This document shows, piece by piece, positions 42,904 through 48,484 of a stretch of 64,000 nucleotides of DNA. Position 1 is the stretch's first letter; the number at the start of each line of letters is the position of its first letter. Both the position numbers and the translations under genes were made by a program. The notes beneath the pieces are model-generated. The model had not been told where the DNA came from, did not search any database, and saw only the letters and a program-made list of their open reading frames with translations. This DNA comes from Parvibaculum sp. GTDB taxonomy: Bacteria > Pseudomonadota > Alphaproteobacteria > Parvibaculales > Parvibaculaceae. The DNA is taken from NCBI GenBank assembly GCA_030645235.1, contig JAUSMV010000005.1, positions 310,001 to 374,000 on the forward strand, in the 5' to 3' direction.

Positions 42904-44421
42904 ATGTCAGACAATTCTAAACAGGTCGGCTCGGTCGCCTATCAGAATCCGGGTGCCGACTATTTTGATAAACGTGGCCTCAAACGCTATGCAGGCGTTT
43001 GGTCGCTTTGGGCGCTGGGGGTCGGCGCCGTTATTTCCGGACATTTCTCGGGCTGGAACTTCGGACTCGCGCATGGCTTCGGGCCGATGCTCGTGGCCGC
43101 CGTCATCATCATGGTGATGTATCTCGGCCTCACCTTCTCCATCGCCGAAATGTCGCCCGCACTACCACATACCGGCGGCGCCTACTCATTTGCCCGCGCA
43201 ACACTCGGACCCTGGGGCGGCTTCGTCACGGGTCTTGCCGAGAATATCGAATATGTACTGACACCGGCCGTCATCAATTTTTTCATCGGCTCGTACCTAA
43301 CCGCGGTCTTCGGCACGCCACCTGAATACCAACCACTCTGGTGGCTCGGCTCCTATATTATCTTCGTGTCGCTGAACATTGCAGGCGTCGAACTCTCCTT
43401 TAAATCAACGCTCGTCGTCACGATCGCGGCGCTCTCTGTCCTCGTCATTTTCTGGCTCAGCGCCTTTCCCGTCATGGACTTCTCGCGCTGGGCCCTCAAC
43501 ATCGCAGCCGACGGCACCGAACTGGTGGATGGCGGCGGCTCATGGTTCCCGATGGGCTATTACGGCATCCTCGCCGCTCTGCCTTTTGCGGTCTGGCTCT
43601 TCCTTGCCATTGAGCAATTACCGCTTGCGGCCGAAGAAACCCATAATCCCAAACGCGATATGCCGCGCGGCATTATCGCGGGCATCTTCACGCTGATGCT
43701 CTCGGCTTTCATGATCCTCTTCCTCAACACCTCCGTCTCGCCGGGTGCTTTTGGTATTGCCACGTCAGGCGAACCTCTGCTCGACGGCTTCCGCTCAACC
43801 ATCGGCGGCAATATCGCCGCCGCTCTTTCTCTCGCGGCCGTGATCGGCCTGATCGCCAGCTTCCACACGATCATCTTCGCCTTCGGTCGTCAGATCTACT
43901 CGCTCTCCCGCGCAGGCTATTTCCCGCGCGGTCTCTCCGTCACCCATGGCACACGCAAGACACCACACATCGCGCTCATCGCCGGTGCCGTGCTCGGCTA
44001 TGGCGTCATGCTCATCATGTGGTTCGGGCTTGGCGCAGAAGCCGGTGGTGCCGTTATCGGCGGCACGCTGCTCAACATGGCGGTCTTCGGGGCCATGATC
44101 TCCTACTTCTTCCAGGCGGTGAGCTTCATCCGCCTGCGCATGGTGATGCCGGATATTGAGCGGCCCTATCGCAGCCCGCTCGGCATCGGCGGCGCTGTGC
44201 TGACGCTGATCATTGCCGCTGTGACGCTCTTTTATCAGTTGCAGGATCCCGTCTATCAGGTCGGCGTCTATGGTGCCGCCGCCTGGTACATTCTCGGCAT
44301 CATCTATTTCGGTCTGATCGGACGACACAAACTCGTCCTCTCACCGGAAGAAGAATTTGCCCTCACCAAAGGCAAAAAGGGCCATCCGGAAACCGAAGGC
44401 TACGGCTCAACCAAAGTCTGA
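42904..44421 (+). CDS. APC-family amino acid permease, ethanolamine permease-like
   Basis: This 505-residue membrane protein has about twelve hydrophobic segments and the APC-family opening GLKRYAGVWSLWALGVGAVISGHFSGWNFG. It also has the helix-6 region FLAIEQLPLAAEETHNPKRD near 235-255. This combination matches the ethanolamine/amino-acid permease branch, so the substrate is probably an amine or amino alcohol. AAGGGG lies about ten bases before the ATG. The glutamine-synthetase-like, aldehyde and alcohol dehydrogenase genes follow in the same direction, which argues for uptake of the compound they degrade. Confidence 0.88.
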   Translation: MSDNSKQVGSVAYQNPGADYFDKRGLKRYAGVWSLWALGVGAVISGHFSGWNFGLAHGFGPMLVAAVIIMVMYLGLTFSIAEMSPALPHTGGAYSFARATLGPWGGFVTGLAENIEYVLTPAVINFFIGSYLTAVFGTPPEYQPLWWLGSYIIFVSLNIAGVELSFKSTLVVTIAALSVLVIFWLSAFPVMDFSRWALNIAADGTELVDGGGSWFPMGYYGILAALPFAVWLFLAIEQLPLAAEETHNPKRDMPRGIIAGIFTLMLSAFMILFLNTSVSPGAFGIATSGEPLLDGFRSTIGGNIAAALSLAAVIGLIASFHTIIFAFGRQIYSLSRAGYFPRGLSVTHGTRKTPHIALIAGAVLGYGVMLIMWFGLGAEAGGAVIGGTLLNMAVFGAMISYFFQAVSFIRLRMVMPDIERPYRSPLGIGGAVLTLIIAAVTLFYQLQDPVYQVGVYGAAAWYILGIIYFGLIGRHKLVLSPEEEFALTKGKKGHPETEGYGSTKV

Positions 44422-44553
44422 GCCATTCATCAGATAAGCAGCGGCGCTGATATTGCGGTCAAGCATATCAGCGCCGCCGTTCTTCAAATCCCGGTCTTTC
44501 AAAGCGCATCTGCGCGCAGCGAATGCCCGAAACGTATCTCAGGAGTGTTTTCT

Positions 44554-47309: not shown

Positions 47310-48484
47310 TCGACCAATATGCCTCGCTCGTCGGCAACTGGAACTACCCGACGAAAATCCGTTTCGGTGCGGGTCGCATCAAAGAACTGGGCGATGCCTG
47401 CCGCGCGGCGGGCATTCGCCGTCCGCTGCTCGTCACTGATCCCGGCCTGAAACCCATGCCGATGATCATGGACGCTATCGGCACGCTCGAACATGCGGGT
47501 CTCGCCTGCGCGCTCTTTGCTGACGTGCATCCCAATCCTGTCGGCGCCAACGTTGAAGCCGGTCTTAAAATTTATCGCGGCGGCAAGCATGACGGCATCA
47601 TCGTCTTTGGCGGCGGCAGCGCCATGGACGCGGGCAAGGCCATCGCCTTCATGTCCGGCCAGACGCGGCCCATGTGGGATTATGAAGACCGCGAAGACTG
47701 GTGGAGCCGCGCGGACCCTGCCGGCATCGCACCTGTCATCGCTGTGCCGACAACGGCGGGCACCGGCTCCGAAGTCGGCCGCGCCGCTGTCATCGTGGAT
47801 GAGCGCGACCACACGAAAAAAATCATCTTCCATCCCAAGATGCTGCCCGTCGAAGTGATCGCCGACCCCGAACTCACGCTCGGCCTGCCCGCCCATATCA
47901 CGGCAGCGACCGGCATGGACGCGCTGTCGCATAGTCTGGAAGCCTATTGCAGCCCCTTCTTCCATCCGCTTGCACAGGGCATCGCGCTTGAAGGCATGCG
48001 CCTTTGCAAAGAGTGGCTACCCGCCGCCGTCAAAACGGGAAGCAATATCGAAGCGCGCTCTTTCATGATGGTCGCATCATCCATGGGCGCGACAGCTTTT
48101 CAAAAAGGCTTGGGCGCGATGCATGCGATGAGCCATCCCTGCTCATCGCTGCGCGGCACACATCACGGTCTCACCAATGCCGTCGTCATGCCCTATGTGC
48201 TTCTCCACAATAAATCGATGATCGAAGAGCGCCTCGCCGCATCCGCGCGCTATATGGGCCTCAAAAACCAGACCTATAGCGGCTTTGTTGATTGGGTTCT
48301 GGCACTGCGCGAAGACGTGGGCATTCCCAATACACTGAAAGACATCGGCGTCGATCTCGACATGATCCCCGAAGGCGCGCCGATGGCGCTCGAAGATCCG
48401 TCAACCGGCGGCAATCCGCTGCCCATGACACGCGGCGACTATGAAACCCTCTATCGCAATGCGATTGAAGGTCGTCTCGTCTGA
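47306..48484 (+). CDS. Iron-containing alcohol dehydrogenase
   Basis: This 392-residue group III (Fe2+-dependent) alcohol dehydrogenase has the nucleotide-binding GIIVFGGGSAMDAGKA near 92-107. The PTTAGTGSEVGRAAVI segment lies near 147-162. The metal ligands are the Asp and His of GMDALSHSLEAY near 202-213, the His in GAMHAMSHP near 270 and the His in THHGLTNAVVMPY near 286. It ends the four-gene unit and would oxidise the hydroxyl of the gamma-glutamylated amino alcohol if that pathway is correct. Confidence 0.92.
   Translation: MIDQYASLVGNWNYPTKIRFGAGRIKELGDACRAAGIRRPLLVTDPGLKPMPMIMDAIGTLEHAGLACALFADVHPNPVGANVEAGLKIYRGGKHDGIIVFGGGSAMDAGKAIAFMSGQTRPMWDYEDREDWWSRADPAGIAPVIAVPTTAGTGSEVGRAAVIVDERDHTKKIIFHPKMLPVEVIADPELTLGLPAHITAATGMDALSHSLEAYCSPFFHPLAQGIALEGMRLCKEWLPAAVKTGSNIEARSFMMVASSMGATAFQKGLGAMHAMSHPCSSLRGTHHGLTNAVVMPYVLLHNKSMIEERLAASARYMGLKNQTYSGFVDWVLALREDVGIPNTLKDIGVDLDMIPEGAPMALEDPSTGGNPLPMTRGDYETLYRNAIEGRLV

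What the first reader, a model, noticed from the sequence alone, without database searches (positions are those of the whole stretch)
42904..48484. Candidate gamma-glutamylation pathway for ethanolamine or another amino alcohol
Seen: an ethanolamine-type permease, a GS-like ligase without the adenylylation loop, an aldehyde dehydrogenase and a Fe-dependent alcohol dehydrogenase in one direction, the last three joined by ATGA overlaps. Known: IpuC in Pseudomonas makes gamma-glutamyl-isopropylamide, and Streptomyces GlnA4 makes gamma-glutamylethanolamide, each followed by oxidation. Inferred: amino alcohol is imported, masked by glutamylation, oxidised to aldehyde then acid, and freed by a hydrolase that is not in this window. 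This would be an alternative to EutBC ammonia-lyase and microcompartments. The ligase is not GmaS-like in its N-terminus, which argues against methylamine.
Basis: partly seen in the sequence, partly recalled or inferred. Interest (0 to 1): 0.65.

Follow-up and report, generated by a model that had tools for sequence, protein, structure and literature searches.

The report
Known ethanolamine glutamylation operon, Parvibaculum version
A Parvibaculum-like bacterium carries genes that most likely import ethanolamine, tag it with glutamate and oxidise it towards glycine, a breakdown route already published for other bacteria, so the find is ordinary apart from its changeable uptake gene and its unlinked last step.

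Summary
In detail: Eat-like permease (42904-44421), GS-like ligase (44554-45918), aldehyde dehydrogenase (45915-47309) and iron alcohol dehydrogenase (47306-48484), one direction, the last three joined by two ATGA overlaps. The same four enzyme families are tabulated for Chromohalobacter salexigens (PMC9397018), the Phaeobacter MED193 proteins rose on phosphorylethanolamine (PMC10132767), and Streptomyces GlnA4 was shown to make gamma-glutamylethanolamide (PMC6529630). Of 11 plasmid loci read, 5 alphaproteobacterial ones repeat the core with an adjacent N-formylglutamate-amidohydrolase-type gene. Here that gene is not on the window's contig and no RpiR gene was matched nearby. EutB is absent from the genome. 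A distant FGase elsewhere is a weak candidate for the last step. Local point: in 16 Parvibaculum-like loci with mipZ upstream, 12 have no room for a permease before the ligase, 3 have an S. meliloti-type permease and 1 the window's type. Substrate specificity of this enzyme is inferred, not shown. New member of a known kind; low interest.

The parts
42904..44421 (+). APC-superfamily Eat-like permease, putative ethanolamine importer
   Evidence: PF13520; TIGR00908 352.5 bits, below cut-off 381.75; 49% to a protein annotated ethanolamine permease in Thermomicrobium
44438..44482 (+). predicted strong hairpin between permease and ligase, possible terminator or attenuator (approximate coordinates)
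   Evidence: the 71-nt stretch 44430-44500 folds at -32.3 kcal/mol; function untested
44554..45918 (+). GS-like ligase, putative ethanolamine gamma-glutamylase (gamma-glutamylethanolamide synthetase)
   Evidence: PF00120; best solved relatives 11zs and 5dm3; 58-row clade with cluster-linked ligases, 100/99 support
45915..47309 (+). aldehyde dehydrogenase, putative gamma-glutamylaminoacetaldehyde dehydrogenase
   Evidence: PF00171 418.5 bits; ATGA overlap with ligase; follows the ligase in related loci
47306..48484 (+). iron-dependent alcohol dehydrogenase, putative gamma-glutamylethanolamide dehydrogenase
   Evidence: PF00465 and PF25137; ATGA overlap with ALDH
41656..42627 (-). mipZ, left border of the site (not part of the pathway)
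   Evidence: PF09140 373.3 bits
48922..49797 (+). panC, right border of the site (not part of the pathway)
   Evidence: PF02569 319 bits

Best explanation
This is a Parvibaculaceae copy of the known ethanolamine pathway that runs by gamma-glutamylation, without EutBC. The permease imports ethanolamine. The ligase joins its amino group to the gamma-carboxyl of glutamate using ATP, giving gamma-glutamylethanolamide. The Fe-ADH oxidises the alcohol to the aldehyde and the ALDH oxidises that to gamma-glutamylglycine. A hydrolase encoded elsewhere releases glutamate and glycine. Shown here: gene content, order, overlaps, clade of the ligase, conserved order in relatives, absence of EutB. Inferred from published homologous clusters: the substrate and each reaction. 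Not identified: the hydrolase and the regulator in this genome.
For: Families and overlaps. Ligase in a 58-row clade at 100/99 with 11zs, 5dm3 and cluster ligases, without GmaS, GS and the own paralogues (the print was cut before the 5dm3 row, whose place is seen in the quick tree). Ligase-ALDH-FeADH with an adjacent N-formylglutamate amidohydrolase in 5 of 11 plasmid loci read (S. meliloti, R. leguminosarum, Aminobacter, P. denitrificans, Ruegeria); 4 of these 5 also have a MurR/RpiR gene, as in the Phaeobacter order RpiR-GGAH-EtoVWX-ETAGA-GAADDH-GETADH, whose listed proteins rose on phosphorylethanolamine (PMC10132767, abstract and passages seen). The Aminobacter cluster adjoins bhcABC of glyoxylate metabolism, which suits a glycine product. 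PF00120, PF00465, PF00171 and PF05013 are the set tabulated for C. salexigens (PMC9397018, passages). A relative of the permease lies two genes from a relative of the ligase in Thermomicrobium. No EutB match in the own genome; among the 14 control genomes E. coli alone rang.
Against: No substrate test exists for this enzyme. The permease misses the curated Eat cut-off. No PF05013 gene lies on the window's contig. The closer of the two own FGases is 34-41% identical to the 11 cluster-linked ones, branches apart from most of them and lacks the DGV motif that 10 of those 11 have. The ligase clade holds members in other contexts: L051 beside aminoethylphosphonate transaminase without ALDH or ADH, L066 with ALDH but beside an aminotransferase and a dimethylformamidase-like gene, L029 among sugar-type genes. 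Clade membership therefore does not fix the substrate. In one search, 13 of 39 genome-contig loci show the ligase without a match to this ALDH-ADH pair beside it; 8 of those 13 have a short-chain dehydrogenase match after the ligase instead.
Confidence: 0.8

Rival explanations
1. The same chemistry acts on a different primary amino alcohol, such as alaninol (2-amino-1-propanol), giving gamma-glutamylalanine.
For: Nothing here separates ethanolamine from a slightly larger amino alcohol; clade members in other gene contexts suggest some spread of substrates.
Against: Shared core order with the Phaeobacter cluster whose proteins rose on phosphorylethanolamine; Eat-like permease; bhcABC neighbour in Aminobacter.
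Confidence: 0.12
2. The ligase is a glutamine synthetase or a polyamine or methylamine ligase, and the oxidoreductases serve something else.
For: It shares the GS catalytic domain and has sub-threshold hits to GlnA and GGputSyn.
Against: Under every equivalog cut-off; lacks the adenylylation-loop and FDGSS stretches of the own GlnA; outside the GmaS/GS group in the tree; 4-base overlaps with ALDH in the window and the order ligase-ALDH-ADH in 21 of 39 genome-contig loci.
Confidence: 0.05

Closest known systems
Phaeobacter sp. MED193 ethanolamine cluster RpiR-GGAH-EtoVWX-ETAGA-GAADDH-GETADH (MED193_10021-10056; PMC10132767, passages)
   Same: Ligase, ALDH and alcohol dehydrogenase in the same order, in an alphaproteobacterium
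   Different: TRAP transporter instead of an Eat-like permease; hydrolase and RpiR regulator adjacent there, not here. MED193 sequences were not compared; P. denitrificans L050 has the same layout and its ligase is 53% identical
Streptomyces GlnA4 (SCO1613) cluster (PMC6529630, abstract and passages)
   Same: GS-like ligase shown to make gamma-glutamylethanolamide, an ALDH, a permease gene in several species, the same proposed route to glycine
   Different: Short-chain dehydrogenase instead of Fe-ADH, and another regulator. For the hydrolase the paper names both a glutamine amidotransferase (orf5) and a formylglutamate-amidohydrolase type (SCO1615). It calls the permeases dissimilar to EutH and Eat. 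The GlnA4 sequence was not compared; Arthrobacter L052 and Embleya L063 are look-alikes by gene content
Chromohalobacter salexigens predicted pathway (PMC9397018, passages); that PDB 5dm3 comes from this organism is recalled
   Same: PF00120, PF00465, PF00171, PF05013 set; 5dm3 scores 522 bits against the ligase
   Different: Uptake there is tied to a TRAP binding protein, Csal_0678 (PMC10132767); original paper not held
Sinorhizobium meliloti pSymB cluster (L047)
   Same: Ligase, ALDH and Fe-ADH 61, 56 and 57% identical, same order
   Different: Very different APC-type permease (24% over 125 aa to the window's); FGase and RpiR genes present
IpuC, Pseudomonas isopropylamine pathway (recalled)
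   Same: Gamma-glutamylation followed by oxidation
   Different: Sequence not compared here; no monooxygenase among the four genes

Membership tests
Gamma-glutamylation ethanolamine pathway (Csal/Phaeobacter/GlnA4 type) | GS-like ligase of the cluster-linked clade | tested here: met
   58-row clade at 100/99; 5dm3 inside it
Gamma-glutamylation ethanolamine pathway (Csal/Phaeobacter/GlnA4 type) | Alcohol and aldehyde dehydrogenases in the same operon | tested here: met
   ATGA overlaps; PF00171 and PF00465
Gamma-glutamylation ethanolamine pathway (Csal/Phaeobacter/GlnA4 type) | Gamma-glutamylglycine hydrolase of FGase type beside the core (usual in the published clusters, not strictly required) | tested here: not met
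   Both own PF05013 genes are on contig C55, the window is on C36; the closer one branches apart from most cluster-linked ones. C26-type hydrolases were not searched genome-wide
Gamma-glutamylation ethanolamine pathway (Csal/Phaeobacter/GlnA4 type) | Ligase makes gamma-glutamylethanolamide | not testable with these tools
   Needs an enzyme assay
Eat ethanolamine permease (TIGR00908) | Score above the curated cut-off 381.75 | tested here: not met
   352.5 bits, best model but under the cut-off; called Eat-like only
Eut (EutBC) pathway | EutB in the genome | tested here: not met
   0 matches to PF06751 in the own genome; E. coli rang as control. EutC not searched
GmaS / methylamine ligase | Groups with GmaS | tested here: not met
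   9qur (glutamate-methylamine ligase) groups with GS, outside the 58-row clade
GlnA glutamine synthetase | Above the TIGR00653 cut-off, adenylylation loop | tested here: not met
   258.3 of 429.15 bits; loop stretch absent

The most novel reading that the evidence does not exclude
In Parvibaculaceae the enzyme core is a widespread, chromosomally fixed module (between mipZ and panC in most loci seen) that mainly salvages ethanolamine released inside the cell by phospholipid turnover. Uptake is an optional add-on, gained at least twice when very different permeases were placed at the same slot, and an unlinked hydrolase finishes the route.
Probability: 0.3. Interest if true: 0.4.

Novelty: new member of a known kind. 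Interest (0 to 1): 0.2.

Why it matters
It adds Parvibaculaceae to the bacteria with a published ethanolamine route and shows a stable enzyme core with exchangeable transporters: Eat-like, S. meliloti-type APC, TRAP, or none at the locus. It can help to name GS-like genes that are otherwise called glutamine synthetase. It does not change the understanding of the pathway.

Tried and rejected
Set aside on scores, missing loop and tree: plain glutamine synthetase, polyamine ligase, methylamine ligase.

Own FGase L054 (G000:C55:193099-193974) as the missing hydrolase: left as a weak candidate. It is found in 34 of 40 family genomes and so is the ligase, the own genome counted in both. Both are missing in G012, G016, G001 and G010; G001 and G010 are only 68-70% complete. 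G002 and G030 (57% complete) have the FGase but not the ligase; G026 (74%) and G028 (83%) have the ligase but not the FGase. The two complete double-negatives, G012 and G016, share 91% DNA identity over 9.3 kb, so they are at most one event. A match at E <= 1e-15 occurs in 41 of 67 genomes drawn from the class, not separated into this type and the cluster type, so the gene is not clearly dedicated. Its sequence lacks the DGV motif and it branches apart from most cluster-linked FGases. Other own candidates are not linked to the core: two gamma-glutamyltranspeptidase matches and a gamma-glutamyl-GABA-hydrolase-like protein next to another GS-like gene, 181.2 of 266 bits.

Little gained: searches repeated, as the order held the same 40 genomes. 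One weak sigma-54-like match at 42558, inside mipZ, not pursued. Parvibaculum plus ethanolamine gave 2 papers; in PMC3368416 the one mention is a membrane lipid, and PMC5125639 was seen in the listing only. The organism of PDB 11zs was not found. EutC and C26 families were not searched genome-wide. No structure was predicted, as close solved relatives exist.

Full report
Observation. The window holds an Eat-like permease (42904-44421), a GS-like ligase (44554-45918), an aldehyde dehydrogenase (45915-47309) and an iron-dependent alcohol dehydrogenase (47306-48484), all on the + strand. The last three are joined by ATGA at 45915-45918 and 47306-47309. The permease stands apart, with 132 bp and a strong predicted hairpin before the ligase. 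The ligase reaches no curated GS equivalog cut-off and lacks the adenylylation-loop stretch of the own GlnA.

Where it is. The window lies in a genome of 3.83 Mb in 86 contigs. The best named match of the ligase is a Parvibaculum MAG (83%, L008), so I call the organism Parvibaculum-like. The genome has five PF00120 genes. EutB is absent; among 14 control genomes E. coli alone rang. EutC was not searched.

What the ligase is. The nearest solved chains are 11zs (624 bits) and 5dm3 (522 bits); all others score 181 bits or less. That 5dm3 comes from Chromohalobacter salexigens is recalled, and the organism of 11zs is unknown to me. In a 71-row tree (careful method) the window ligase is in a 58-row clade at 100/99 with ligases from ethanolamine-type clusters and both PDB chains. 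GmaS, GS and the four other GS-like proteins of this genome lie outside. The print was cut before the 5dm3 row; it is placed by elimination there and seen inside the clade in the quick tree. The tool warned that long outer branches may be misplaced.

Conserved order in genomes. One search gave 39 loci; one search scanned them with a panel at E <= 1e-15. 21 of 39 have ligase, ALDH and Fe-ADH together (in L023 a short-chain dehydrogenase lies between ligase and ALDH; in L036 the ligase is cut by the contig start). 3 end within the ALDH (L008, L012, L017). 1 has the ADH but no ALDH match (L022). 13 have no such pair beside the ligase (L029, L030, L032, L033, L035, L037-L044), of which 8 have a short-chain dehydrogenase match after it; L042 ends 310 bases after the ligase match. 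1 (L046) is a 29% match outside the clade.

Plasmid loci. 678 plasmid records had a match; I read 11. Five have the full core with an adjacent N-formylglutamate amidohydrolase: S. meliloti, Ruegeria, Aminobacter, P. denitrificans and R. leguminosarum. Four of the five have a MurR/RpiR gene; Ruegeria has DeoR/GlpR-type regulators instead. In Aminobacter the cluster adjoins bhcABC, which fits glycine passing to glyoxylate. The other six do not show the full core: Paraburkholderia L051 has neither dehydrogenase and stands beside aminoethylphosphonate transaminase; Arthrobacter L052 has ALDH, a reductase of the SDR kind and a gamma-glutamyl-GABA-hydrolase-type gene; Embleya L063 carries no annotation but matches the same set plus an Eat-like permease; Thermomicrobium L064 has a short-chain dehydrogenase and a gene annotated ethanolamine permease; Rhizobium L066 has ALDH and FGase but no Fe-ADH and other neighbours; Rhodococcus L067 is more distant, with two GS-like genes. 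Transporters beside the ligase thus differ: S. meliloti-type APC, TRAP, EamA, Eat-like.

Literature. PMC10132767 (abstract and passages): on phosphorylethanolamine the Phaeobacter hydrolase, ethanolamine-binding protein, ligase and both dehydrogenases rose; the binding protein rose under phosphate starvation too; the pathway figure is headed predicted. PMC6529630 (abstract and passages): GlnA4 makes gamma-glutamylethanolamide and is needed for growth on ethanolamine; the later steps are predicted. PMC9397018 (passages) tabulates PF00120, PF00465, PF00171 and PF05013 for C. salexigens. The original Chromohalobacter paper was not held. For Parvibaculum together with ethanolamine the held library gave 2 papers; the one opened mentions only a lipid.

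The family. At the thresholds used, the ligase is in 34 of 40 family genomes and in 24 of the 27 that are at least 90% complete and at most 5% contaminated. The window's permease type is in 2 of 40 (the stop reported inside the second one is its natural end) and the S. meliloti type in 4 of 40. Of the 16 loci with mipZ upstream, panC follows the core in 13; the other 3 contigs end first. 1 of the 16 (L008) has the Eat-like permease, 3 (L009, L015, L034) the S. meliloti type, and in 12 the mipZ match starts only 1.0-1.1 kb before the ligase, so a 1.5-kb permease gene cannot lie between. In G012, G016 and G002, which lack the ligase, mipZ and panC are close neighbours, so the core was lost or never there. 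In G011 and G004 the ligase lies in a stretch without mipZ or panC; G004 has TRAP genes and no ADH match. Only these two permease types were searched for across the family; other transporters elsewhere in those genomes are not excluded.

The missing hydrolase. Both own PF05013 genes are on another contig. L054 is 34-41% identical to the 11 cluster-linked FGases; L053 matched 7 of 11 at 26-29% over parts of its length. L054 and its family relatives form their own branch and lack the DGV motif present in 10 of 11 cluster-linked sequences, L032 being the exception. L054 is divergent from a glycerate-2-kinase-like gene and a pyruvate kinase gene. It is a candidate but not a convincing one. No RpiR match was found in window 30001-64000 at E <= 1e-12.

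Mechanism and status. Most likely: import, ATP-dependent gamma-glutamylation, two oxidations, hydrolysis to glutamate and glycine. Gene content, clade and order are shown; substrate and reactions are inferred from published homologues. This is a new member of a known kind. Interest is low because the pathway is in print; the modest new point is the fixed enzyme core with exchangeable uptake in Parvibaculaceae.

Noticed in passing
L055:6169-9229 (G000:C58, about 1700168-1703228): A second GS-like gene next to a gamma-glutamyl-GABA-hydrolase-like gene (181.2 of 266 bits) and a LolA gene: possibly a separate gamma-glutamylamine route.
   Followed up: partly
L054:3359-6978: FGase homologue divergent from a glycerate-2-kinase-like gene and a pyruvate kinase gene; a match at E <= 1e-15 is found in 41 of 67 class genomes. 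Function unclear.
   Followed up: partly
window 44430-44500: Strong predicted hairpin between permease and ligase, possible terminator or repeat element.
   Followed up: no
L051:874-8353: A ligase of the same clade beside 2-aminoethylphosphonate transaminase and a gamma-glutamyl-GABA-hydrolase-family gene, without ALDH or ADH: possibly another amine substrate.
   Followed up: no
L029, L030, L044 near the ligase: Ligase of the same clade at about 67% identity without the ALDH/ADH pair; in L029, the only one scanned, it lies among sugar-type genes (FGGY kinase, LacI regulator, solute-binding protein).
   Followed up: partly
L032:12260-13906: Gamma-glutamyltranspeptidase gene downstream of a ligase locus with RpiR, FGase and TRAP genes but no ALDH/ADH match.
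   Followed up: no
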